Shown: positions 33,575-45,977 of the stretch, in pieces
How the letters are laid out: each line of letters begins with the position of its first letter
Position numbering within the stretch: the first letter of the stretch is position 1
From: an uncultured Nitrosomonas sp.
GTDB lineage: Bacteria > Pseudomonadota > Gammaproteobacteria > Burkholderiales > Nitrosomonadaceae
Assembly (NCBI GenBank): GCA_949281375.1
Contig: CASDLT010000053.1
Span: forward strand, 1 to 64,000
Length of the DNA: 64,000 nt
Reading direction: 5' to 3'
Made by a program: the position numbers and the translations under genes
Notes under the pieces: generated by a model
The model's database searches: none
What the model saw: only the letters and a program-made list of their open reading frames with translations
What the model was told of the DNA's origin: nothing

Positions 33575-35554
33575 TCATACCCAACAGGAACAACCGAGTG
33601 CACCCCAGAAACGGCCTTGATCGTTGGCAGCCACGACATTATGATAAGCTCGCCCATGTGCATGGCCATGCACAATGCAGCGGTTACTGCAGCCACAAGC
33701 CGTTGAAGCGAATGGGTGTGCGAGGTCTGCTGCTGGCTTGTAATAGCCGCCGAAGTGATTCACCGGTGACCAATCAGGCATGGCTGGCGGTAGCGGTGGC
33801 GCCAATCCGCTGAATTCATCGCTGGCGTAAACGATATTGCCGTCAACCAGAGTCAATACCGAGACCATCTGGCGAATTTCATGATCGGGGATTTCGAAAT
33901 AATCAGCGGAAAGTACTGCCAGATCGGCGTATTGACCCGTTTTGATCTGACCTTTGACGCCTTCTTCATTTGAGAACCAGGTATTGGCAAGTGTGTACAG
34001 GCGTAGCGCGGTCTCACGGTCGATCAAATTTTCTCGAGGATACAGCGACAGGCCACCCACGGTTCGGCCCGTGATCATCCAGTACAGCGCATTCCATGGA
34101 TCATAGCTGGAAACCCGTGTGGCATCTGTGCCTGCACCGACATTCACGCCCATGTCCAGCATGCGCCGGTACGGTGGCGTTCGCTCTGCCGCTTTGCGGC
34201 CGTAACGTTGCACAAAATATTCGCCCTGATAGGCCATGCGGTGCTGGATTGCAATACCGCCACCCAATTTTGCGATGCGTTCGAGGTTGATGTCCGTCAC
34301 CGTTTCAGCATGATCAAAAAACCAGTGAAGGCCATCGAAAGGGACGTCGCGATGTACTTTCTCAAATACATTCAATGCCTCCGTGATGGTTTCATTATAG
34401 GTGGCATGCAGGCGAAACGGCCAGCGGTGGCTGACAAGCAGGCGGACGACGGCTTCCAGATCATTGTTCAAGTCAGACGCTACTGTCGGGCGCGGCATCC
34501 GAAAATCCTCAAAATCTGCTGCGGAAAAAACCAGCATTTCACCCGCGCCATTGTGACGGTAGTAACGATCGCCGTAGCCAGGCTGCACCATTTTGATCCA
34601 TTTTGAGAAATCGGCGATTTCTTTGCCGGGTTTCTGCGTGAATAAGTTGTAAGCAATCCGCAATGTTAGTTCGCCTGCCCGATGCAATGTCTCGATGACT
34701 TTATAATCGTCGGGATAATTCTGATAGCCTCCGCCGGCGTCAATGATGCTGGTCACACCCAGGCGGTTCATCTCGCGCATGAAATGTCGCGTCGAATTGA
34801 TCTGGTATTCGAACGGCAATGCCGGGCCCCGCGCCAGCGCTGAATAGAGAATCAATGCGTTGGGTTCCGCCAGCAGCAGACCGGTGGGTTCACCATGGTT
34901 ATCCCTGGCAATCAAGCCACCCGGCGGATTGGGCGTGTCGCGGTCGTAGCCACAGGCGCGCAAGGCCGCGCGGTTGAGCAAAGCGCGGTCATACAAATGT
35001 AAAATGAAAACCGGCGTATCCGGCGCGGCCACATTGATTTCATCGAGAGTAGGCAAGCGTTTTTCAGAGAACTGCAATTCGGAAAAGCCGCCTACTACCC
35101 GTACCCATTGGGGCGCAGGCGTGCGTGCCGCCTGATCTTTAAGGCGGCGCATCGCATCGGCCAGCGACGGGATGCCATCCCATCGCAATTCGAGGTTGTA
35201 ATTGAGTCCACCCCGGATCAGGTGGAGGTGCGAATCGATCAGTCCCGGAATGACGCGTCGGCGGTTAAGATCAATGACATCCGTATGACTGTCAGCCAGC
35301 CGCATGACTTCATCATCGCTACCCACCGCAAGGAATCGGCCATTCGCGATCGCGACGGCGGTTGCATGTGGATTTTGACGGTCGAGCGTGCTGAAGCGGC
35401 CGTTGCGAAGTATCCGCAGAGCTTTCAGATCGTCGGTAAAGGCAGGTTCGCCCGAGGCATTGGTGAAGCGTCCTGTCTGAGAAAATAGCATGGTCGCACC
35501 GGCGGCTTGGAGAAAACGGCGACGCATCGAATCAGGTGGCGGTGAATTTTTCAT
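33575..35554 (-). CDS. Tat-exported amidohydrolase, YtcJ-like
   Basis: A 659-residue metal-dependent amidohydrolase. The N-terminus has a twin-arginine signal (MRRRFLQAAGATMLF), implying folded export to the periplasm. Barrel motifs include VIPGLIDSHLHLIRGG (HxH metal pair), the HWFFDHAETVTD and AIQHRMAYQGEY stretches, the GAGTDATRVSSYDPWNALYW aspartate motif and GQYADLAVLSADYF. The C-terminal HGHAHGRA and FWGALGCSCWV segment is Cys/His-rich and also seen in relatives. The substrate cannot be told from sequence. Isochorismatase-family and MFS genes flank it on the same strand. Confidence 0.85.
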   Translation of the reverse strand: MKNSPPPDSMRRRFLQAAGATMLFSQTGRFTNASGEPAFTDDLKALRILRNGRFSTLDRQNPHATAVAIANGRFLAVGSDDEVMRLADSHTDVIDLNRRRVIPGLIDSHLHLIRGGLNYNLELRWDGIPSLADAMRRLKDQAARTPAPQWVRVVGGFSELQFSEKRLPTLDEINVAAPDTPVFILHLYDRALLNRAALRACGYDRDTPNPPGGLIARDNHGEPTGLLLAEPNALILYSALARGPALPFEYQINSTRHFMREMNRLGVTSIIDAGGGYQNYPDDYKVIETLHRAGELTLRIAYNLFTQKPGKEIADFSKWIKMVQPGYGDRYYRHNGAGEMLVFSAADFEDFRMPRPTVASDLNNDLEAVVRLLVSHRWPFRLHATYNETITEALNVFEKVHRDVPFDGLHWFFDHAETVTDINLERIAKLGGGIAIQHRMAYQGEYFVQRYGRKAAERTPPYRRMLDMGVNVGAGTDATRVSSYDPWNALYWMITGRTVGGLSLYPRENLIDRETALRLYTLANTWFSNEEGVKGQIKTGQYADLAVLSADYFEIPDHEIRQMVSVLTLVDGNIVYASDEFSGLAPPLPPAMPDWSPVNHFGGYYKPAADLAHPFASTACGCSNRCIVHGHAHGRAYHNVVAANDQGRFWGALGCSCWV

Positions 35555-35575: not shown

Positions 35576-36208
35576 CTATTTTTTAGTCATGGCGACATAG
35601 CTCGTCATTAAATTGCGGTAATTGGGTAGATAGCTGGAAAACAGCGCACCCAGACCTTCGACATCGTTGCGCCAGTCACGGTGTAATTCACAGGCAATAC
35701 CGAACCAGTTCATCAATTGCACCCCGGCATTCTGCATCCGCAACCAGGCGGCGTCCCGAGTTACTGGATTGAACGTGCCAGAGGCATCCGTAACCACGAA
35801 TACATCATAACCCTGCTCAACTGCAGACAATGCCGGGAAGGCCACGCAAACTTCAGTGACGACTCCAGCGAGGATCAGCTGGTGGCGTCCTGTTTGCTTG
35901 ATCGCGTTGACGAAATCGTCATTATCCCAGGCATTGATGTTACCGGGGCGTGCAATGTAAGGCGCAGCCGGATGCATTTCCTTGATTTCGGGAACCAGCG
36001 GGCCATTCGGGCCTTCCTCGAAACTGGTCGTCAGGATCGTGGGCAGACCGAAATACTTGCCGCACGCTGATAAGGCCAGCACGTTATTCTTGAACTCATT
36101 CGGTGAAAAATCCTGTACCAGTGAAATCAGCCCGGCCTGATGATCGACCATGAGCAAAACGGCATCATCCTTGGATAATCGTTTATAGGTAAAAGTATGA
36201 TTCATCAT
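35576..36208 (-). CDS. isochorismatase-family cysteine hydrolase (YcaC-like)
   Basis: A 210-residue hydrolase with the family triad: Asp in VLLMVDHQAGLISLV, a presumed Lys/Trp region around INAWDNDDFVNAIKQTG, and the nucleophile Cys in LILAGVVTEVCVAFPALSAVEQGYDVFVVTDASG. YcaC relatives have no firmly assigned substrate; other members cleave amide or carbamoyl bonds (biuret, ureidoacrylate, nicotinamide). It lies 21 bases before the exported amidohydrolase gene and 142 bases after the pirin gene on the same strand. Confidence 0.88.
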   Translation of the reverse strand: MMNHTFTYKRLSKDDAVLLMVDHQAGLISLVQDFSPNEFKNNVLALSACGKYFGLPTILTTSFEEGPNGPLVPEIKEMHPAAPYIARPGNINAWDNDDFVNAIKQTGRHQLILAGVVTEVCVAFPALSAVEQGYDVFVVTDASGTFNPVTRDAAWLRMQNAGVQLMNWFGIACELHRDWRNDVEGLGALFSSYLPNYRNLMTSYVAMTKK

Positions 36209-36350: not shown

Positions 36351-37244
36351 TTATGTCATCACGCCCATTTTGCCATTTTGATAATCCTCCATGGCTTGGT
36401 GAATTTCATCGGCAGTATTCATTACGAACGGACCGCTACCGGAGATGGGCTCATCGATGGGCTCGCCGCTCAACAGCAGTGCTACTGCATCCGATGCATG
36501 ATCGATAAGAATGTGGCCGCCGGTACGGTCGAATAGCGCTACTTCTGCTGCCGCGAGAGTTTCCGATCCGGCGATACTCACTGTTCCACGCAGCACCGCC
36601 AGGAGCGTGTTATGGCCATCCGGCACTTCAACTTTAAAACAGTTAGGGTTCGCCAAGCGCAGATCCCAGACGTTAAGTGACGTGAATGTATGGGCTGGCC
36701 CGACTGTGTCTTCGAATTCGCCTGCAATGACACGAACACTGCCGCGATTATCCGGGAGCGTGATCACAGGAATTGCAGCGCTTGGTATGCTTTGATAATG
36801 CGGAGCGGACATTTTATGTTTGGCGGGCAGATTGACCCATAGCTGCACCATCTCAAGAATGCCGCCGTGGCGCGCAAAATCACGACCGTGAAATTCTTCA
36901 TGAACCAAGCCTGAAGCTGCTGTCATCCATTGCACATCGCCGGGGCCGATCTTGCCGCCACCGCCGGAGCTGTCGCGGTGTTGGACTTCGCCGCTATACA
37001 CGATGGTCACGGTTTCAAATCCACGATGCGGATGAGCGCCTACGCCATGTCGTTGTTCAGTCGGGGCAAAGTTTTTCGGTCCGGCATAATCGAATAACAA
37101 GAAAGGACTGATCAACGAACCCAGCGTGGAATACGAAAATAAGGTGCGCACCGGAAAACCATCGCCAACCCAGTGTTGATATGTATTTTTCTGAATCTGT
37201 AACAGTTTTTTCGGGGATATTTCAGCTTGTGTGGGCGACATCAT
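36351..37244 (-). CDS. pirin-family bicupin
   Basis: A 297-residue two-cupin protein. The N-terminal cupin carries the metal ligands GAHPHRGFETVTIVYSGEVQHRDS and the later His/Glu in SGLVHEEFH; the second cupin is less conserved. Bacterial pirins include quercetin dioxygenases and redox or metabolic regulators, so the role is open. The start is ATG 37244, which has AAGGAG 5 bases upstream; the frame continues to 37286 without such a site. It lies 142 bases after allophanate hydrolase. Confidence 0.88.
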   Translation of the reverse strand: MMSPTQAEISPKKLLQIQKNTYQHWVGDGFPVRTLFSYSTLGSLISPFLLFDYAGPKNFAPTEQRHGVGAHPHRGFETVTIVYSGEVQHRDSSGGGGKIGPGDVQWMTAASGLVHEEFHGRDFARHGGILEMVQLWVNLPAKHKMSAPHYQSIPSAAIPVITLPDNRGSVRVIAGEFEDTVGPAHTFTSLNVWDLRLANPNCFKVEVPDGHNTLLAVLRGTVSIAGSETLAAAEVALFDRTGGHILIDHASDAVALLLSGEPIDEPISGSGPFVMNTADEIHQAMEDYQNGKMGVMT

Positions 37245-37386
37245 CGTTACTCCTTGAATGGTCATATACCAATAGAGTGAGCGCAATGATTTAAATTCCG
37301 GGGAATTTATTTGGCAAAGCCTGGAAGGATTCTGAAACCCAGCGATTCTGAGGCTGGCTGGATCTCAGAACTTAGCATAATTCGAA

Positions 37387-39204
37387 CTATGGCTGCTTCA
37401 ATTGCCGCAGATAAGCTCGCCATCCACCGCAATGACTGATATCTTCCGCAGTGCCGATGGCATGATGCTCGCACAGAAAACCCTGAATCGATTCGCCATT
37501 CGCCAATGTCAAGGTTCCGATCCCCAGTGGCGCAGGAATGCCGGCGATCAAACTGCCGAATTGCCGCAGGGATAATTCCCAGACTTCGACTTCGATTGCG
37601 AAACCTCTTTCGCCAGGTTTCACGCGAATCAATCCCGGCCGTCGGGGAGGGAAGCCAGGTAATGCAACCAGCCGGTATTCCGGCGATGTGGTTGTAACGG
37701 CGATCAGTCGGCCCTGACGGCTGGTCAATTGTTCGTTCAAAGGCAAACCGGATAAATGTGCGCCGCAGACGGCGATCCGCACCTGACCGGAATGCGATGC
37801 AGCAGCAAACTGCGCTGCGGTTGGAAAGGGAAGGCCAGTTGCGCCCAATGGAAGGCAATAAGCCTGTTGCAGGCGATGAGCGAAATGCAGCAACGGTTCG
37901 TCCTGATGTGCTGGCGCAACCAAGGTAATACCAAATGGCAGCCCATTCTGTTGAAAGCCAGCCGGTACGGCGACTGCTGCATAATCGAGCAAATTCATGA
38001 AATTGGTGTAGTAACCCAGGTTGTTATTGAGGCGGATGGGATCGTGCTGCAACGCTTGAATGGTATAGATCGTTCCAGCGGTTGGGGTCAACAGACAATC
38101 GATGGTTGCCCAAACCTGATTTGCCTGCCGGGCGGTATCGCGTAATCGGTAAAAACCCTTGAAAGCATCGGCTGCCGTGTGTTGCTTTGCAGAGGCGATG
38201 ATGTCCCGCACCGGCGAAATGATCTGATCGCTATGCCGATCAAAGAAAGATTGAATGGCCGCATACCGTTCTGCGACCCAAGGGCCTTCATACAGCAAAC
38301 GAGCCGCTTTCAGGAATGGCTCGAAATCGATGTCGATGATTGCTCCGCCGAGTGCTTCAACCTGAGCGACCGCCTCGTTAAATAACCGTTCGCAGTCGCG
38401 GTTACCGAAGAACTTCAGTTGATCTTTCCGGGGTATGCCGACGCGAAAATGCGCTGCTTTGCCAAAATCAAACCCATGACCTTCTTTTTCGCGGGAGAAA
38501 CTATCCTGTCGGTCAAAACCAGCCGCGATATCCAGGATGCGCGCTGCATCCGTTGCCGTATGCGCGAAGATGGATATCGTATCGAGGGAGCGGCAAGCCG
38601 AGACCATACCGGCAGATGAAAACCATCCTTTGGTCGGTTTATAGCCGATCACGTTGTTGAAAGCTGCGGGAACTCGGCCAGAACCGGCGGTATCGGTGCC
38701 CAGGCTGAAACATACCTGGCCTTTTGCAACAGCAACGGCAGAACCCGAGCTTGATCCGCCGGAAATATAGCCGGGGTCGAACGCATTTTGGCACGCGCCA
38801 TACGGAGACCGGGTGCCATTCAAGCCGGTGGCGAATTGATCGAGATTGGTTTTGCCGACCGGAATCGCGCCGGCATCGAGCAACCGTTGCACGACAGGCG
38901 CAGAATGTTCCGGTTGATAACCAAAAGCCGGGCACGCGGCTGTCGTAACGGTATTTGCCAGATCAATATTATCCTTGATTGCAAACGGCACGCCATACAG
39001 TGGCAATGCTTCCAACCCGCGCGCTTCGACATTGCGGGCATGATTTTTTAATGCCGTCAGTGGCAGGATCGAGATCCAGATGGCATTTTCGTTCTTTTGA
39101 ATACTGGCATGCAACGCCTCGACCATTGCGGTGGGTGTCAGCGTTCCCGCGGCATACCGTTGCAATAGCGATGAAATATCACCAAATGGCAGGACATCGT
39201 GCAT
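37387..39204 (-). CDS. atzF: allophanate hydrolase
   Basis: Hydrolyses allophanate to NH3 and CO2, the last step of urea-amidolyase and guanidine-carboxylase pathways. Residues 1-440 are an amidase-signature domain with the Ser-Ser-Lys triad: Lys77 (FAIKDNID), the GGSSSGS serines at 151-153 and nucleophile Ser175 (DTAGSG). The C-terminal 160 residues form the AtzF-specific domain that handles the N-carboxyurea intermediate. The length of 605 is full size. Its ATG shares one base with the carboxylase stop, so the two are translationally coupled. Confidence 0.95.
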   Translation of the reverse strand: MHDVLPFGDISSLLQRYAAGTLTPTAMVEALHASIQKNENAIWISILPLTALKNHARNVEARGLEALPLYGVPFAIKDNIDLANTVTTAACPAFGYQPEHSAPVVQRLLDAGAIPVGKTNLDQFATGLNGTRSPYGACQNAFDPGYISGGSSSGSAVAVAKGQVCFSLGTDTAGSGRVPAAFNNVIGYKPTKGWFSSAGMVSACRSLDTISIFAHTATDAARILDIAAGFDRQDSFSREKEGHGFDFGKAAHFRVGIPRKDQLKFFGNRDCERLFNEAVAQVEALGGAIIDIDFEPFLKAARLLYEGPWVAERYAAIQSFFDRHSDQIISPVRDIIASAKQHTAADAFKGFYRLRDTARQANQVWATIDCLLTPTAGTIYTIQALQHDPIRLNNNLGYYTNFMNLLDYAAVAVPAGFQQNGLPFGITLVAPAHQDEPLLHFAHRLQQAYCLPLGATGLPFPTAAQFAAASHSGQVRIAVCGAHLSGLPLNEQLTSRQGRLIAVTTTSPEYRLVALPGFPPRRPGLIRVKPGERGFAIEVEVWELSLRQFGSLIAGIPAPLGIGTLTLANGESIQGFLCEHHAIGTAEDISHCGGWRAYLRQLKQP

Positions 39205-42200
39205 CAGCCGTTTCCTTCCTGAACGATGAACAATACCTGGCCAGCCGATACATAGTTTCCCTGGTGGCAGAAGAGCCGTTGTATCGTGCCGGTAACTGGC
39301 GAATCGATCGGAAATTCCATTTTCATCGACTCGACCATTATTATCGTTTCACCTGCGGTGATCGAGCCGCCTTCATCGACCAATAGCTTCCAGATCGTGC
39401 CGGTAACCGGTGAGCTGACGGCGTGGGCACCGCTGGGCAAATCCAGTTCGCTTTGCGCATCGGCTTCTTCAAGTGCATCTTCATCCGTATACTGCGCCTG
39501 GTCCTGCGCTTCCCAGCGCCGGCGTTCGGCTTCAAAAGCTTCTTGCTGCCGGGTTTTGAATGCGGCAATGCTGGCTGCGTGCTGCTGCAGATCAGCGTTA
39601 TATTGCCTAAGATTCAGCGTCGATTGCTCAGTGCGCAACTTGAAATGACCGCTGATGAAATCCTTGCGCAGCGTCAGCAACTCGCTTTCGCTGACGGGAT
39701 AAAAACGGATCTGGTCAAAGAAGCGCAGCAGCCACGGCTGACCATCCTTGAAATCGGCAGTCTGGCGGTAGCGGTTCCACATTTGCACGGTGCGCCCGAC
39801 GAATTGATAACCGCCAGGGCCTTCCATGCCGTAGACGCATAAGTAAGCACCGCCGATGCCGACGGCGTTTTCAGGGGTCCAGGTTCGGGCCGGGTTGTAT
39901 TTTGTGGTGACCAGCCGGTGCCGGGGATCCAACGGAGTTGCAACCGGCGCGCCGAGATAAACATCCCCGAGTCCCATGACCAGGTAACTGGCTGTGAATA
40001 CGATGTGACGGACGTCTTCGATGCTTTCCAAGCCATTGATGCGGCGTATGAACTCAATGTTGCTCGGGCACCAGGGTGCATCACTTCGCACCGAATGCAT
40101 GTATTTATCGATTGCCTGGCGGGTGGCGGCATCATCCCACGACAGGGGGAGATGCACGATGCGGGATGGCACTTCCATGTCATCGATGGGCGGCAATTGG
40201 TTTTCTGCGGCGATCAGCAGCTCGAGCAATTGATCGCGGGCGACACTCAGCGAATCAAAATGAATCTGCAACGAGCGTATCCCAGGAGTCAAGTCGATAA
40301 TACCGTGCAATTCGCCGCGCTGAATGTGTTTCTGCAACCAGATCATCAGCGCATGCGCACGAAAACGCAAATTCAGATCCAGTACGGGAGGACCATACTC
40401 GACCAGTAGATAATGATCGCCCGATTGCCGGTAAGTTACTTCCATCCGGGCGCTACTTGCAGCCATGCGATGCAATACTGGATCATGCAATGGCGCCGGG
40501 TGCACATCGATGAGTGGTTCGCAATCCGCCTGCAACCGTTCGATCAATTGATGTTGTTGTTTTTCCAGAATTGGCGCCAACTCAGTTGGTATCGCCTGAA
40601 AACGGACACTGTCTCCGGGTCTGAGCTGGCCGATTTTCCACAATTCAGCCTGAATAATGGTAACTGGGCAGACAAATCCCCCCAGACTGGGCCCATCCGG
40701 GCCGAGGATGATCGGCATGTCGCCGGTAAAATCGACTGCACCGATGGCATAGGCGTTGTCGTGGATATTGGACGGGTGCAGGCCGGCTTCGCCGCCATCA
40801 CTCCGCGCCCATTGGGGTTTAGGGCCGATGAGCCGCACGCCGGTGCGGCTGGAGTTGTGGTGCACTTTCCACTCGGCCGCAAAAAATTGCGCAATATCGG
40901 CCTCGGTGAAAAAATCAGGAGCGCCGTGAGGTCCATACAGCACGGCGATTTCCCAATGGTTGGAATAACCGGGGATCAATTGCTGGGGTAATTGCTGTGG
41001 AACAAAGGGTTGCGATGGATGCATGGGCGCGACATGCAGCACGTCACCGGCGCGCAGCACGCGGCCTGCATGACCGCCAAATTGACCGAGCGTGAAAGTG
41101 GATTTGCTGCCGAGATAGTCTGGCACCTGAAAGCCGCCCTGTATCGCCAGATAAGCACGGCTGCCGGCTTGTTTGATTTTGCCGAACTGTAACAGAGATC
41201 CTGCGGTGACGCGCCGCGATTGCCATTGTGGCAACGGTTCGCTATCCAGCGATATGTCTATCGGCGCTCCACAGATCGCGATGATGCTGTCGCAATTGAA
41301 GCGCAGCGTAGGGCCCGCCAGAGTGATTTCCAGTCCGGCGCATGTCGGGGCATTATTTACCAATCGATTAGCCAGACGGAAAGCCAGGTTATCCATCGGT
41401 CCGGAAGGAGGTACGCCGACGCTCCAGTAGCCGGTGCGTCCAGGATAATCCTGAATCATGGTTTGAACGCCCGCGCTCAAAACGTCGATCGTATCCGGGT
41501 GATAATGGAAGCCATTCAGGAACTGCGTGGTTGATTGTCCACTGCGGAAGGTTTCGCCGTGCAGGATCTGTTTGAGATAATCCAGATTGGTTTCGATCCC
41601 ATGCAGCGAGGTCTGATCCAATGCATCGATCAATCGGTTGATTGCTGTGTTGCGATCCGGCGCATGCACGATGATCTTGGCGAGCATCGGATCGTAAAAG
41701 GCGGATACGTCGCTACCCCGTTCGATCCAGGTTTCTACCCGCGCCTGTGCAGAAAACTCAGCGGCGGTCAGAATGCCGCTCGACGGCTGAAAATCCTTGG
41801 CAGGATTTTCAGCATAGACGCGAACCTGTATCGAAGCGCCCTGGGGTGTAATTGCGAATGAATCGAGCGCTGGCAAATCTCCGGCAGCTTGACGCACCAT
41901 CCATTCGACCAGATCGATGCCGGTGACTTCTTCCGTGACCCCATGCTCGACCTGCAAGCGGGTGTTGACTTCGAGAAAATAGAATTGGCCGGTGTCAGCG
42001 TCAAAGATGAATTCTACCGTACCTGCCGATTGATAATTAACCGCCTTTCCTAGTCGCACCGCGGTATCGAGCAGCGCCTGACGCTGTGCTGTCGCGAGAT
42101 TGGGAGCGGGAGTTTCCTCGATGACTTTCTGGTTGCGTCGCTGCATCGAACAATCGCGCTCACCCAGTGCAACGACGTCGCCCTGACCATCGCCGAAAAT

Positions 42201-42833
42201 CTGCACTTCGATATGTCGCGCCGCAGACACATATTTTTCCAGAAACAGGCCAGCATCCTTGAAATTATTCTGCGCCAGCGTTTTGACCGACTCATAGGCG
42301 CCGACCAATTCGTCTTGATTCCAGCACAGTCGCATGCCGATACCACCGCCGCCCGCAGTGCTCTTCAGCATAACCGGATAACCGATGTGCTTGGCTTGAT
42401 GGCAGGCTGTTTCGAGGTTTTCCAGCAATTCGCTTCCCGGCAACAGCGGTATCTGATTTTGCAGTGCTATTGCGCGTGCCGTGTGCTTTAAACCGAAGGC
42501 GCGCATTTGCTGCGGCGTCGGGCCAATGAATGAGATGCCGTGCGCGGCGCATTGCTCGGCAAAGTCGGCTTTTTCGCTGAGAAAACCATACCCGGGATGA
42601 ATCGCCTGCGCGCCGGTTTGCTGGGCAATGTCGAGAATTTTATCAGTACGCAAATAACTTTCAGCTGCAAGGCCGGTGCCGATGCAGTACGCCTCATCCG
42701 CGTCCGTGACATGCCGGGATAGCGCATCGGCTTCGGTATAGACGGCGATACTGCGTATTCCCATGCGCCGCAGCGTGCGGATGATCCGGCAGGCAATGGC
42801 GCCGCGGTTGGCGATCAGGATGGTATGAAACAT
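39204..42833 (-). CDS. biotin-dependent guanidine carboxylase (urea carboxylase-like)
   Basis: A 1209-residue multidomain enzyme. Domains in order: biotin carboxylase (about 1-450; ILIANRGAIACRIIRTLRRMG, the KSTAGGGGIGMR ATP-grasp loop, EVNTRLQVEHGVTEE), the KipI/KipA-like carboxyltransferase (about 465-1030; VGVPPSGPMD, LGLGDVYLGAPVATPLDPRHRL, GIGGAYLC), and a C-terminal biotin carrier with biotinyl Lys1171 in VESMKMEF. By sequence alone it could be urea carboxylase; the ykkC riboswitch and the two DUF1989 genes point to guanidine as substrate, giving carboxyguanidine. ATG 42833 has AAGGAG 6 bases upstream; the longer frame to 42887 lacks this. Confidence 0.92.
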   Translation of the reverse strand: MFHTILIANRGAIACRIIRTLRRMGIRSIAVYTEADALSRHVTDADEAYCIGTGLAAESYLRTDKILDIAQQTGAQAIHPGYGFLSEKADFAEQCAAHGISFIGPTPQQMRAFGLKHTARAIALQNQIPLLPGSELLENLETACHQAKHIGYPVMLKSTAGGGGIGMRLCWNQDELVGAYESVKTLAQNNFKDAGLFLEKYVSAARHIEVQIFGDGQGDVVALGERDCSMQRRNQKVIEETPAPNLATAQRQALLDTAVRLGKAVNYQSAGTVEFIFDADTGQFYFLEVNTRLQVEHGVTEEVTGIDLVEWMVRQAAGDLPALDSFAITPQGASIQVRVYAENPAKDFQPSSGILTAAEFSAQARVETWIERGSDVSAFYDPMLAKIIVHAPDRNTAINRLIDALDQTSLHGIETNLDYLKQILHGETFRSGQSTTQFLNGFHYHPDTIDVLSAGVQTMIQDYPGRTGYWSVGVPPSGPMDNLAFRLANRLVNNAPTCAGLEITLAGPTLRFNCDSIIAICGAPIDISLDSEPLPQWQSRRVTAGSLLQFGKIKQAGSRAYLAIQGGFQVPDYLGSKSTFTLGQFGGHAGRVLRAGDVLHVAPMHPSQPFVPQQLPQQLIPGYSNHWEIAVLYGPHGAPDFFTEADIAQFFAAEWKVHHNSSRTGVRLIGPKPQWARSDGGEAGLHPSNIHDNAYAIGAVDFTGDMPIILGPDGPSLGGFVCPVTIIQAELWKIGQLRPGDSVRFQAIPTELAPILEKQQHQLIERLQADCEPLIDVHPAPLHDPVLHRMAASSARMEVTYRQSGDHYLLVEYGPPVLDLNLRFRAHALMIWLQKHIQRGELHGIIDLTPGIRSLQIHFDSLSVARDQLLELLIAAENQLPPIDDMEVPSRIVHLPLSWDDAATRQAIDKYMHSVRSDAPWCPSNIEFIRRINGLESIEDVRHIVFTASYLVMGLGDVYLGAPVATPLDPRHRLVTTKYNPARTWTPENAVGIGGAYLCVYGMEGPGGYQFVGRTVQMWNRYRQTADFKDGQPWLLRFFDQIRFYPVSESELLTLRKDFISGHFKLRTEQSTLNLRQYNADLQQHAASIAAFKTRQQEAFEAERRRWEAQDQAQYTDEDALEEADAQSELDLPSGAHAVSSPVTGTIWKLLVDEGGSITAGETIIMVESMKMEFPIDSPVTGTIQRLFCHQGNYVSAGQVLFIVQEGNG

Positions 42834-42896
42834 GCTGTTCTCCTTTTTTTCGAAGAGTGAACTGCTTTGAAGCGACGTTTGATTCAATCCATCGGG

Positions 42897-43565
42897 CTAT
42901 TGCCGGGAATCCCAGATGAGCAGGCGTATCGGAGTGGGATTGTAGGCATTGCAGGGATTGTTCAATTGCGGGCAATTCGAGATCAACACCAGAACATCCA
43001 TTTCCGCCTGCATCTCAACAAATTTCCCGGGCGCAGAGATGCCATCGACAAACTCCAGCTCGCCCACTTCAGTGACAGGCACATTCATGAAGAAATTGAT
43101 GTTGCTGGGAATATCGCGCTTGCTCATGCCCAATTGCTCACAGTGCGAATCATGCGCCAGGGCGTGCAGAAAGTTGTCTCGGCAACTATGCATCGGAAAT
43201 TTGTCGAGCGCATAACGAACAGTATTGCTCTCCGCCGCGCAGGCGCCGCCCAGGGTGTCATGCCGCCCGCAGGTGTCGGCCGTGATCGTCAGCATCACAT
43301 TGCCGAGATTGGAATATAGCTTGCTGCCAGTTGTCAGATACAGTTTGTTCTGGGCGCGTATGGTATGGGTCGCGCTATAACGTTCAGCGGCATAGTGCGC
43401 ATTGTAGAACAACGTGTCGACTGCCTGATTGCCTTCCAAATCGACGATACGGAAAATCTGTCCTTGCCGGATGATTTGAGTCCAGGGCTCACCGGCTGCG
43501 CAGGTGTTATCGATGAGAGCCCGTTCGGGATCGAGCTGATCTGAATGAAGGGTTGATGTATTCAT
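42897..43565 (-). CDS. carboxyguanidine deiminase subunit (DUF1989, urea carboxylase-associated protein)
   Basis: A 222-residue DUF1989 protein, formerly called a urea carboxylase-associated protein. Family features are the [29 protein letters not shown] start, [19 protein letters not shown] with a conserved Cys, CRDNFLHAL and the INFFMNVPV segment. In other bacteria the two paralogues form the CgdAB enzyme that turns carboxyguanidine into allophanate and NH3. Which of the two is CgdA or CgdB I cannot say. It overlaps the next upstream gene by 4 bases and precedes the carboxylase. Confidence 0.9.
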
Positions 43566-44287
43566 AACGTATCCTCACAATAAAAATGTTTGGCGTTTTG
43601 TAATGCCCGCCTGTTCTCAGCGATTTGCAGGCATTCATTCAAGGCTTCGGCAGGCGTATTGAACAACTCCAGATCGACCGCGCCGGGTTGATAGGACGGC
43701 CGTGGATCGAGCGGGTGTGGCGCTGTGGACAGTACGACCAGCGTATTCATGGCGAAACTCAGATCGATCAAATCGCCGGCCTTGCTGTGGTTGGGATGAA
43801 ATGCCAGTTCACCGGCGCTGTTGGTGGTCACTTTGCTGAAAAAATTGATGTTCGAAACGATGTCACGCATTCCCAATCCCCATTTACCCAGTTCGATCAA
43901 CAAACCATCCACGCCGCTGCGATACATGGCGTTACGATGTTCCTGATAGCGGGCGGTACCGTATTTGTGGCGGATGAGTTCACTGTCACTGAGGCCGCAT
44001 ACGGTATCGTTCCAGCCCGCCGTATCAGCGGTGATGCAGCAGAAGATGCGTCCCATGTCGGAGTGGCAGGCATGACCCTTGGTCAAACGGAATGTGCGCT
44101 GGGATTTCAGCGTGTCCGCCATATTGTAACGTTCAAGCTTTTCCTCCTGATTGAAGAACAATACCGCGGCATTGGCGCCGCCGTCGACATCGATCAAACG
44201 TAAAGTAGTGCCGTGCCGGACGATGCCCGACCAGTGGCAACCTCCCGGTATGGATTGTTTCCAGATGATTGTATTCTGTTCATTCAT
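43562..44287 (-). CDS. carboxyguanidine deiminase subunit (second DUF1989 paralogue)
   Basis: A 241-residue paralogue of the next gene, with the same plan: [48 protein letters not shown], and [33 protein letters not shown]. It differs in lacking the [12 protein letters not shown] cysteine pattern (here [12 protein letters not shown]), which suggests that only one subunit carries the full active site or that the two are specialised. It overlaps the permease gene by 8 bases and the next DUF1989 gene by 4, so the three are coupled. Confidence 0.9.
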
Positions 44288-45746
44288 GATCTATTCCTTT
44301 GTAGGATGGTTTTTTGTCACCAATCCAATAATGATAAAAAATATATAACGTGGTGATGGCTAGAATACCTCCTAACACCAGCGGCGTTGCCCATAATTGC
44401 CACCACGGGGCTTCCGCTGATATGGCATACGGGCGTGGCCATGCAATATTGATGACTTCAAACAGAGACCACAGGAATGCCAGAATATTGATGACCAATC
44501 CCCATGCGCCAAGTTTCAACTCGCCGAGTTGAGGATTCCAGCGGCCCGACAGCCTGGCAAACAACGCAAAGCCGGTCGTGAACGTGAACATGGCGTATAA
44601 ACCGCCCGTGCCGAAAGCAATGATGGTGGCGACGGCGTCGTCATTCAGCCCGAAAATCAATCCGCATGCTGCTAGAACAACGGTAAAAAGAACGGCATTG
44701 CGCGGGGTTCCGCTGGTCGTGACTTTGCTCAATACGGCTGGCATATTGCCTTCGCGCGCCATCGAAAACACAATGCGCGAGGTATATTTGACCATCGATG
44801 CGCCGCAAGCCAGAAAAGCGGTCATCACAATCGTCAGAAAGGGTATTTCGAACCACTCGCCAATGCTGCTGGCGATGAGTGGAGTGACGGGATCGGACGT
44901 GTGACTCGAATGCCGCAAAGTGTCATGCTCAAAAGACAGAATCAGTGCGGCTGAATTGAATAGCACCACTGTGCCTACCACCAGCAATGACATAAAGATG
45001 GCGCGGGGCACCATGCGTTTTGGGTGATGGGTTTCTTCCGCGGTGGTCGAACAGGCATCGAAGCCGATGAAAGCCCAGCCTGAAATCGCCAAGGCCGCCA
45101 AAAACGCGGCCATTTCACTCGGCGCCGTGCCAGTGCCCATATTCTGGAACAAGGTGTCGAGGGAATGCTGGCGGAAGAAAAAGAACAATACCAGCGCTAC
45201 GCCGAATGATCCGACCACTTCGGCGTATACACCCAGCTTGATGACGATATTGAAAATGCTGACAGGAGCCAAATTGAGTATCGTACAAAGCAGTAGAAAT
45301 ATCGCACCCCAAAATACCATGAAGCCGCCGCCTTCATTCGATAATCCACTGAAGATAGCCAGCCAGAAACCACCGGTATAAGCCGTGGTCGTGACCATCG
45401 CGATGGTGGAGCAGATATATATGACGCCGGCATAGTGCCCGGCGATTACGCCGCCCAATTGACGCGCCCATTTATAGGCCCCACCAGCGATGGGAAACTG
45501 GGATGATAGTTCGGCATACACGGTTGCGACCAACAATTGCATCAGCAAGCATACGGCCAGGGCGGAAAACCAGCCACCGCCGGCTACCACTGTCTGAACA
45601 CCGATGATGGCGTACAAACCAGCCACTGGCGAAACCACTGCGAAACCGAGCGTGAAACTGTGCCATACGCTCATGCTTCTACTAAGCGTATCGCAAATTA
45701 TAGGATCGCCCTGAGATGAAACGGTGTGGTGTGTTGAATCTGACAT
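44280..45746 (-). CDS. APC-family permease, predicted guanidine importer
   Basis: A 488-residue amino-acid/polyamine/organocation transporter with about twelve membrane segments; conserved first-helix sequence FTLGFAVVSPVAGLYAIIG and FPIAGGAYKWARQLGG, and GFDACSTTAEETHHPKR in the region after helix 6. APC permeases of this type often head guanidine-I-controlled carboxylase clusters, so import of guanidine is inferred. The start is ATG 45746, which has GGAG 6 bases upstream; ATG 45758 in the same frame has none. It is the first gene after the riboswitch. Confidence 0.87.
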   Translation of the reverse strand: MSDSTHHTVSSQGDPIICDTLSRSMSVWHSFTLGFAVVSPVAGLYAIIGVQTVVAGGGWFSALAVCLLMQLLVATVYAELSSQFPIAGGAYKWARQLGGVIAGHYAGVIYICSTIAMVTTTAYTGGFWLAIFSGLSNEGGGFMVFWGAIFLLLCTILNLAPVSIFNIVIKLGVYAEVVGSFGVALVLFFFFRQHSLDTLFQNMGTGTAPSEMAAFLAALAISGWAFIGFDACSTTAEETHHPKRMVPRAIFMSLLVVGTVVLFNSAALILSFEHDTLRHSSHTSDPVTPLIASSIGEWFEIPFLTIVMTAFLACGASMVKYTSRIVFSMAREGNMPAVLSKVTTSGTPRNAVLFTVVLAACGLIFGLNDDAVATIIAFGTGGLYAMFTFTTGFALFARLSGRWNPQLGELKLGAWGLVINILAFLWSLFEVINIAWPRPYAISAEAPWWQLWATPLVLGGILAITTLYIFYHYWIGDKKPSYKGIDHE

Positions 45747-45806
45747 AACGCTCTCCATTCAAAAGGATTTGCCGAGATTGTAATGGACTCGACGACCATT
45801 ACACCT
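45747..45806 (-). promoter_or_regulatory. expression platform between riboswitch and permease gene
   Basis: On the minus strand an 8-bp hairpin TGTAATGG / CCATTACA (45779-45803) follows the aptamer. The aptamer 3' end (GAGAT) can instead pair with ATCTC just after this hairpin, which would lengthen it and break the conserved GGGAGA of the aptamer. No U-run follows, so it is not a standard terminator. The ribosome binding site GGAGAG is at 45751-45756. Translational or Rho-linked control is possible. Confidence 0.5.
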
Positions 45807-45904
45807 AATCTCCCGGGTTTTTTTCCCTCCGTGGAGTCCCGTTATCACGAGACCGGAAACTCTTGGACCAGACGCCAGGATGAAGATGGCCGGAACCCTA
45901 GTTT
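45807..45904 (-). ncRNA. guanidine-I (ykkC) riboswitch aptamer
   Basis: The minus-strand leader contains the conserved ykkC elements in order and spacing: CTAGGGTTCCG, a variable stem, TCTGGTCCAAGAG (consensus GGTCCGAGAG, one change), a second variable stem, and CACGGAGGGA followed by an A-run and CCCGGGAGA. This class binds guanidinium and turns on detoxification or degradation genes. It lies about 60 bases before the permease start and presumably controls permease, both DUF1989 genes, carboxylase and allophanate hydrolase as one operon. Confidence 0.94.
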
Positions 45905-45948
45905 CTCATTAAAGCGAACTAAGAAAGTATTCGCTAAAAAGTATTTGC

Positions 45949-45977
45949 ATTGTATGTGCGCATTTCCAGAAAAGCAA
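45949..45977 (-). promoter_or_regulatory. sigma-70 promoter of the guanidine operon
   Basis: On the minus strand TTGCTT (45972-45977) and TACAAT (45949-45954) are 17 bases apart. Transcription would start near 45942, about 38 bases before the aptamer. A second candidate -10 (TTTAAT) lies closer to the aptamer but lacks a good -35. Confidence 0.5.

What the first reader, a model, noticed from the sequence alone, without database searches (positions are those of the whole stretch)
37387..45977. Complete guanidine-degradation operon under a guanidine-I riboswitch in a probable ammonia oxidiser
Seen: a ykkC aptamer on the minus strand, then permease, two DUF1989 genes, a biotin carboxylase-carboxyltransferase and allophanate hydrolase, all overlapping or within 64 bases except for the last coding gap. 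Known: in other bacteria these steps convert guanidine to carboxyguanidine, allophanate and finally NH3 and CO2, releasing three NH3 in total. Inference: in a Nitrosomonas-like host guanidine would serve as an ammonia source for energy as well as nitrogen. Comammox Nitrospira inopinata is reported to use guanidine through a different enzyme (a guanidinase), so this would be an independent route in nitrifiers.
Basis: partly seen in the sequence, partly recalled or inferred. Interest (0 to 1): 0.88.

Follow-up and report, generated by a model that had tools for sequence, protein, structure and literature searches.

The report
Riboswitch-controlled guanidine breakdown operon in Nitrosomonas
An ammonia-oxidising bacterium carries a guanidine-sensing RNA switch in front of a full set of genes predicted to import guanidine and break it down to ammonia; this is real, but the same pathway was already reported in 2024 for most bacteria of this group.

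Summary
On the minus strand lie a guanidine-I aptamer (85.3 bits, gathering 63), an APC permease, two DUF1989 proteins, a biotin carboxylase-carboxyltransferase and allophanate hydrolase. The diagnostic residue is Asp (opposite K. lactis Asn1330), so a guanidine carboxylase is predicted. The host is a Nitrosomonas-type ammonia oxidiser with HAO, amoC and urease; amoA is missing from the assembly.

The novelty claim fails. Palatinszky et al. 2024 (PMC11410670, passages) found guanidine-degradation genes, always of the carboxylase route, in 135 of 145 betaproteobacterial ammonia oxidisers. Of five strains tested, none used guanidine alone; three used some with ammonium.

Added here: a hairpin competing with the aptamer's 3' end folds in 55 of 55 distinct leaders, without a consistent U-tract. 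Allophanate hydrolase passes its cut-off in only 34 of 85 congeners, the carboxylase in 78. Seven congeners have a second riboswitch-linked operon whose carboxylase lacks the biotin-carboxylase half.

The parts
45808..45912 (-). guanidine-I (ykkC) riboswitch aptamer
   Evidence: RF00442, 85.3 bits, model 1-107 of 107; only one in the genome assembly
45772..45816 (-). hairpin whose 5' arm is the 3' end of the aptamer (CCGGGA of CCCGGGAG); likely the OFF structure of the expression platform (inferred)
   Evidence: Folds in the window and in all 55 distinct leader segments examined, window included; shuffle control: for the window alone 6 of 100 shuffles fold as stably
44280..45758 (-). APC-superfamily permease, probable guanidine importer (second ATG at 45743 follows GGAG)
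   Evidence: PF13520 2e-34; TIGR03428 'permease, urea carboxylase system' 164 bits, cut-off 740 not met; permease next to the riboswitch motif in 41 of 58 related loci
43562..44287 (-). DUF1989 protein UAAP1, carboxyguanidine deiminase subunit (predicted)
   Evidence: TIGR03425 316 bits, cut-off 206; PF09347
42897..43565 (-). DUF1989 protein UAAP2, carboxyguanidine deiminase subunit (predicted)
   Evidence: TIGR03424 342 bits, cut-off 285; PF09347
39204..42833 (-). guanidine carboxylase (biotin carboxylase, carboxyltransferase and biotin carrier domains); TTG at 42887 would add 18 residues
   Evidence: TIGR02712 1943.7 bits, cut-off 1303.9; D719 aligned with K. lactis Asn1330; D975 in GLGD; biotinyl Lys motif ESMKMEF
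37387..39204 (-). allophanate hydrolase (amidase plus C-terminal AH_C domain)
   Evidence: TIGR02713 795 bits, cut-off 511; PF01425 and PF21986

Best explanation
A guanidine-inducible catabolic operon. Guanidinium binds the ykkC aptamer in the leader RNA and stabilises its 3' helix, so that a competing hairpin (45816-45772) cannot form and the operon is expressed. The APC permease brings guanidine in; the biotin enzyme carboxylates it to carboxyguanidine at the cost of ATP; the two DUF1989 subunits deiminate that to allophanate, releasing NH3; allophanate hydrolase splits allophanate to two NH3 and CO2. In this ammonia oxidiser the NH3 can be assimilated or oxidised. Shown here: the genes, their order, the aptamer, the signature residues, conservation in relatives, and the competing hairpin as a recurrent predicted fold. 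Inferred: ligand binding, the direction of switching, substrates, and use of the NH3 for energy.
For: Aptamer. Family assignments above curated cut-offs for carboxylase, both DUF1989 subunits and allophanate hydrolase. Asp at the K. lactis 1330 and 1584 equivalents in the window and in 56 of 56 and 54 of 54 readable named relatives, out of 58 loci (these are close relatives found with the window's own protein). The six-part order riboswitch-permease-deiminase-deiminase-carboxylase-hydrolase in 23 of those 58 loci (riboswitch scored there by a 10-base motif). RF00442 in 73 of 85 genomes of the genus, TIGR02712 over cut-off in 78 of 85. HAO and amoC in the genome. Published guanidine degradation in related strains with ammonium present: N. 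multiformis Nl12 and Nl13, N. communis Nm2 (PMC11410670, passages). Nitrosomonas sp. Is79, annotated with 'urea carboxylase' and without urease, made no nitrite from urea (PMC3764937, passage, citing unpublished data), which fits an enzyme that does not use urea.
Against: No binding or enzyme assay for this strain was found or could be made here. The permease misses the cut-off of the named urea-carboxylase-system permease by far (164 against 740 bits). The hairpin is not followed by a consistent U-tract, so it is not a standard intrinsic terminator and how expression is stopped is open; for the window alone its energy was reached by 6 of 100 shuffles, and the 79-base leader piece gave z -1.46 with 17 of 200 shuffles as stable. 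Pair-by-pair covariation of the hairpin was not tested. amoA was not found in the assembly. Published tests of five related strains found no use of guanidine as the sole substrate.
Confidence: 0.93

Rival explanations
1. A urea carboxylase / urea amidolyase pathway (the traditional annotation): urea is carboxylated to allophanate and hydrolysed.
For: NCBIfam still names the enzyme urea carboxylase, and genome papers call it that in N. communis Nm2 and Nitrosomonas Is79 (passages).
Against: Asp, not Asn, at the K. lactis 1330 position; a guanidine-I riboswitch in front; two carboxyguanidine-deiminase-type subunits, not needed for urea; this genome has a urease alpha subunit gene already; Is79 made no nitrite from urea.
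Confidence: 0.03
2. Mainly a detoxification operon: the riboswitch senses harmful guanidine, and the gain of nitrogen or energy is incidental.
For: Guanidine at 1 mM is reported to inhibit N. europaea (PMC11410670, passage). In 46 of 85 genomes of the genus the carboxylase passes its cut-off and allophanate hydrolase does not (tallied by hand), which would suit removal of guanidine rather than full recovery of nitrogen. Tested strains did not use guanidine alone.
Against: The first gene is a permease of an importer-type superfamily, and no exporter gene lies in the operon; the window has allophanate hydrolase inside the operon, so all three nitrogens could be released; the pathway costs ATP.
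Confidence: 0.15
3. The host is not an ammonia oxidiser, so guanidine serves only for assimilation.
For: No AMO (PF02461) match in the own genome assembly.
Against: amoC matches on four contigs, all at contig ends, as expected when near-identical copies of a multi-copy amoCAB operon collapse in assembly; hydroxylamine oxidoreductase present; 14 of the 41 genomes have amoA, all of the same genus, with three copies in each of the single-contig congeners G006 and G019.
Confidence: 0.01

Closest known systems
Guanidine carboxylase pathway of betaproteobacterial ammonia oxidisers (Palatinszky et al. 2024, PMC11410670; passages read)
   Same: Same pathway and signature Asp residues, mostly with an APC permease in the same region; guanidine-degradation genes in 135 of 145 genomes; the arrangement under a guanidine-I riboswitch is drawn there for Nitrosospira multiformis (figure legend).
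   Different: Nothing essential was found.
Guanidine carboxylase operons of Vreelandella boliviensis, Raoultella and Klebsiella (PMC12508155, PMC12186494; passages read)
   Same: Guanidine carboxylase, CgdA/B, allophanate hydrolase, guanidine-I riboswitch at the start.
   Different: Those use an ABC importer and a second, guanidine-II riboswitch before the carboxylase; Vreelandella also has mgdH and mgdL. The window has an APC permease and one guanidine riboswitch at Rfam's gathering scores.
Guanidinase route of comammox Nitrospira inopinata (PMC11410670, passages)
   Same: Guanidine-I riboswitch followed by an APC permease in a nitrifier.
   Different: A nickel guanidinase plus urease, with no ATP cost, instead of guanidine carboxylase.
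K. lactis urea amidolyase / urea carboxylase (PDB 5i8i, 3va7)
   Same: Homologous over almost the whole carboxylase.
   Different: Asn1330 in K. lactis, Asp in the window; in 5i8i the carboxylase follows about 600 further residues in one chain, here carboxylase and hydrolase are separate genes.

Membership tests
Guanidine-I riboswitch (RF00442) | Match to the covariance model at or above the gathering score | tested here: met
   85.3 bits against 63, whole model
Guanidine-I riboswitch (RF00442) | Binds guanidinium and changes gene expression | not testable with these tools
   Needs in-line probing and a reporter
Guanidine carboxylase | Urea-carboxylase-type architecture (TIGR02712) | tested here: met
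   1943.7 bits, cut-off 1303.9; biotin carboxylase, CT_A_B, CT_C_D and biotinyl domains
Guanidine carboxylase | Asp at K. lactis 1330 (Asn in urea carboxylase) | tested here: met
   D719 aligned with N1330 of 5i8i, position counted by hand on the printed alignment; residue confirmed by script
Guanidine carboxylase | Asp at K. lactis 1584 | tested here: met
   D975 in GLGDVYLG opposite GLGDVFL of K. lactis, counted by hand; residue confirmed by script
Guanidine carboxylase | Prefers guanidine over urea | not testable with these tools
   Needs an enzyme assay
Carboxyguanidine deiminase (CgdA/CgdB) | Two DUF1989 subunits, UAAP1 and UAAP2 types (that these are CgdA/B is taken from the literature, partly recalled) | tested here: met
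   TIGR03425 316 of 206 bits and TIGR03424 342 of 285 bits
Carboxyguanidine deiminase (CgdA/CgdB) | Falls in the CgdA/CgdB clades of the PF09347 tree | not tested
   No wide DUF1989 tree was made
Allophanate hydrolase | TIGR02713 above cut-off with amidase and AH_C domains | tested here: met
   795 of 511 bits; PF01425 and PF21986
Permease of the urea carboxylase system (TIGR03428) | Score above the curated cut-off | tested here: not met
   164 of 740 bits; it is another APC permease (PF13520)
Ammonia-oxidising bacterium | amoCAB and hydroxylamine oxidoreductase | tested here: inconclusive
   HAO and amoC met; amoA not found in the assembly, amoC copies at contig ends; amoB not searched

The most novel reading that the evidence does not exclude
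Nitrosomonas divides into two guanidine physiologies. A minority, including the window's strain, has the complete route with allophanate hydrolase. The majority has guanidine carboxylase without a recognisable allophanate hydrolase, so guanidine would stop at allophanate or urea: a detoxifying or urea-releasing route. In a group that includes N. eutropha a second riboswitch-controlled operon adds a biotin-carboxylase-less carboxyltransferase under purifying selection, which may borrow carboxybiotin from the full-length enzyme or run as a decarboxylase. The guanidine-I switches of the genus would moreover act through a hairpin without a U-tract.
Probability: 0.45. Interest if true: 0.45.

Novelty: already known. 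Interest (0 to 1): 0.2.

Why it matters
Guanidine is a nitrogen-rich compound excreted in human urine and used in industry. Knowing which ammonia oxidisers can turn all three of its nitrogens into ammonia helps to predict where guanidine feeds nitrification. The locus itself confirms published work. The useful additions are that possession of the carboxylase does not imply a complete route (allophanate hydrolase passes its cut-off in only 34 of 85 genomes of the genus), and that one group has an unusual shortened second carboxylase.

Tried and rejected
Urea carboxylase reading: held unlikely on the Asp residue, the riboswitch and the deiminase genes. Non-nitrifier host: held very unlikely on amoC and HAO. 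Functional link to the downstream genes (pirin 36351-37286, YcaC-type isochorismatase family 35576-36208, amidohydrolase 33575-35554): no family above cut-off named guanidine; the isochorismatase protein has only a weak match to biuret amidohydrolase (32 of 370 bits); they were left out. Intrinsic terminator with U-run: not supported; the T count in the 10 bases after the hairpin ranges from 1 to 7 over 55 leaders. The short ORFs between aptamer and permease in long-leader congeners were looked at by eye only and their coding nature is unproven. An Rfam search of three long-leader loci (L015, L018, L032) found, apart from the aptamers, one match far below its gathering score. A stand-alone AH_C-like gene in six inspected congeners whose hydrolase misses the cut-off is only about 30-37% identical to the hydrolase's C-terminal domain and was not taken as a replacement. 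Rows labelled BCless for L057 and L058 are split or cut-off genes, not the second carboxylase, and were left out of the dN/dS set of seven. In one search duplicate leader segments and segments under 50 bases were dropped before the count of 55. A 22-row leader alignment was made but no covariation count was run on it. Region L139, from a congener without the pathway, is 20 kb only and gave no match; it says nothing.
Full report
WHAT IS THERE. The finding's coordinates hold. On the minus strand, in order of transcription, lie a guanidine-I aptamer at 45912-45808 (85.3 bits, gathering score 63, complete model), an APC permease, two DUF1989 proteins, a biotin-dependent carboxylase and an allophanate hydrolase ending at 37387. 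Genes overlap by 8, 4 and 1 bases; the one gap is 63 bases before the carboxylase ATG at 42833. The aptamer is the only guanidine-I match in the 3.04 Mb assembly. Carboxylase and allophanate hydrolase pass their NCBIfam cut-offs by hundreds of bits, and both DUF1989 proteins pass theirs (UAAP1 316 of 206, UAAP2 342 of 285). The permease is a clear APC protein, but scores 164 bits against a cut-off of 740 for the model named permease of the urea carboxylase system.

THE DIAGNOSTIC RESIDUE. In the printed alignment with K. lactis urea amidolyase (5i8i), residue 1330 (Asn) stands opposite D719 of the window protein numbered from the TTG start; the second signature Asp (K. lactis 1584) stands opposite D975 (positions counted by hand; residues confirmed by script). 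The biotinyl lysine motif is intact. By the criterion used in print (Asp at both places; PMC11410670, passage) this is a guanidine carboxylase.

THE HOST. The nearest named relative of the carboxylase is Nitrosomonas sp. JL21 (89% identity; records very near the window's genome may be left out of that search). Two genomes of the window's genus have carboxyltransferase parts identical to those of N. eutropha Nm24 and Nm57, so the genus is Nitrosomonas. Hydroxylamine oxidoreductase is present. amoC matches lie on four contigs, each at a contig end, and amoA (PF02461) was not found. Of the 41 genomes (the own one included), all of the genus, have amoA; its absence in several drafts of the genus is best read as collapse of near-identical amoCAB copies. 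amoB was not searched. A urease alpha subunit gene is present.

CONSERVATION. Among 79 loci fetched from named genomes with the window's carboxylase (close relatives only), 58 carry a carboxylase at 60% identity or more on the expected strand. Asp at the 1330 position was found in 56 of 56 readable, and at 1584 in 54 of 54 readable (the rest are cut off). 23 of 58 show the full order riboswitch-permease-deiminase-deiminase-carboxylase-hydrolase; 14 show it without a hydrolase, some of these cut by a contig end; 4 are riboswitch-permease-carboxylase; the others are cut or arranged otherwise (riboswitch scored by a 10-base motif, hydrolase by 55% identity). In the genus, 73 of 85 genomes have the aptamer (strict filters) and 78 of 85 the carboxylase over cut-off. 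In a quick tree the window and JL21 sit inside Nitrosomonas, and two sequences filed as Nitrospira (palsa_1310, 337R) group with Nitrosomonadaceae; the published screen names two comammox genomes with this pathway, which may or may not be these.

HOW THE SWITCH MAY WORK. Directly after the aptamer a hairpin (45816-45772) uses the aptamer's own 3' end (CCGGGA) as its 5' arm. In 55 of 55 distinct leader segments at least three bases of CCCGGGAG pair downstream, in 53 of 55 at least five. With the tails shuffled, 53% still reach five, because the arm is G+C-rich, but the observed folds are more stable (mean -17.0 against -10.2 kcal/mol, mean z -2.9; 43 of 55 below -2). For the window alone 6 of 100 shuffles are as stable, and its 79-base leader piece gave z -1.46, 17 of 200 shuffles as stable. 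This fits an ON switch in which ligand binding prevents the hairpin. But the bases after it hold no consistent U-run, so ordinary intrinsic termination is not shown, and covariation was not counted. Direction and level of control remain inferred.

WHAT IS ALREADY KNOWN. Palatinszky et al. 2024 (PMC11410670; passages read) screened ammonia oxidisers: guanidine degradation genes in 135 of 145 betaproteobacterial genomes, exclusively by the guanidine carboxylase pathway, most carriers with an APC permease in the same region, and an arrangement under a guanidine-I riboswitch drawn for Nitrosospira multiformis. Five strains with the gene set were tested: none used 50 uM guanidine as sole substrate in two weeks; N. 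multiformis Nl12 and Nl13 and N. communis Nm2 degraded part of it when ammonium was present. A 2025 review repeats the main points (PMC12186494, passages). Older papers call the enzyme urea carboxylase (passages); Is79 made no nitrite from urea, which fits guanidine as the true substrate.

WHAT THE SURVEY ADDS. (a) The complete set is the minority state. Allophanate hydrolase passes its cut-off in 34 of 85 genomes; nearly all others have only matches far below it, which look like other amidases, or broken copies (G011). Tallied by hand: 32 have carboxylase and hydrolase, 46 the carboxylase only, 2 the hydrolase only, 5 neither. In the 14 assemblies of four contigs or fewer the carboxylase passes in 13 (in G071 as a split gene) and the hydrolase in 5, so missing contigs do not explain it. 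In one group of loci the gene after the carboxylase is a TPMT-family methyltransferase (PF05724). In L020 the same gene follows the hydrolase, while in its close kin L019 and L025 it follows the carboxylase directly, so the hydrolase was lost from, or gained in, the middle of the operon; loss seems likelier because distant relatives have it at the same place. A 2011 table also lists N. europaea with the carboxylase and no amidase (PMC3073912, passage). (b) Seven of 85 genomes, two of them N. eutropha by identity, carry a second carboxylase match lacking the biotin-carboxylase half (780 and 786 aa in the two read). It is in an operon riboswitch-permease-deiminase-deiminase-short carboxylase; in five of the seven this stands back to back with the riboswitch of the full-length enzyme, and in the other two the copies are on separate contigs. 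Both signature Asp and the biotinyl Lys are kept in all seven, the clade has SH-aLRT support 100 and dN/dS is 0.06-0.11 in all 21 pairs, with dS above 1 in many of them. In none of the seven was urease alpha found or an allophanate hydrolase over cut-off; one of the seven is only 80% complete. Searches (the last listing 10 of 19 papers) showed no paper that, from its title, abstract start or the passages I read, describes this short enzyme. In N. [quoted passage not shown] I infer, without having identified those genes, that this may be the same cluster.

VERDICT. A sound observation of a pathway already described for this group of organisms. Interest is low for the locus itself and moderate for the patchy allophanate hydrolase and the shortened second carboxylase in relatives.

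Noticed in passing
L131:5288-11021, L132:2329-8032, L133-L137 (seven congeners): Second guanidine-I-riboswitch operon with permease, two deiminase subunits and a carboxylase lacking the biotin-carboxylase half; catalytic positions kept, dN/dS 0.06-0.11.
   Followed up: partly
genus survey, 85 genomes: Allophanate hydrolase over cut-off in only 34 of 85 genomes against 78 of 85 for the carboxylase; 8 of 14 assemblies of four contigs or fewer have the carboxylase without the hydrolase.
   Followed up: partly
L019:7049-7711, L043:9643-10302, L045:9612-10301, L054:9606-10295; L020 near 11459: A TPMT-family methyltransferase gene follows the carboxylase (or, in L020, the hydrolase) in the same orientation; role unknown.
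   Followed up: partly
L011, L014-L018, L044, L059, L060 between aptamer and permease: Relatives with a long leader have a small ORF with a likely ribosome-binding site after the hairpin, where the window has the permease start; N-terminus partly alike by eye, function unknown.
   Followed up: partly
L143:4249-4611, L144, L145, L146, L147, L148: Stand-alone gene resembling the C-terminal domain of allophanate hydrolase, about 30-37% identical, in six congeners whose hydrolase misses the cut-off.
   Followed up: partly
L138:1109-3266 (G072): Allophanate hydrolase behind its own guanidine-I aptamer, away from the carboxylase operon.
   Followed up: no
L030 and L034: Carboxylases in assemblies named Nitrospira (palsa_1310, 337R) group with those of Nitrosomonadaceae: transfer or misbinning.
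   Followed up: no
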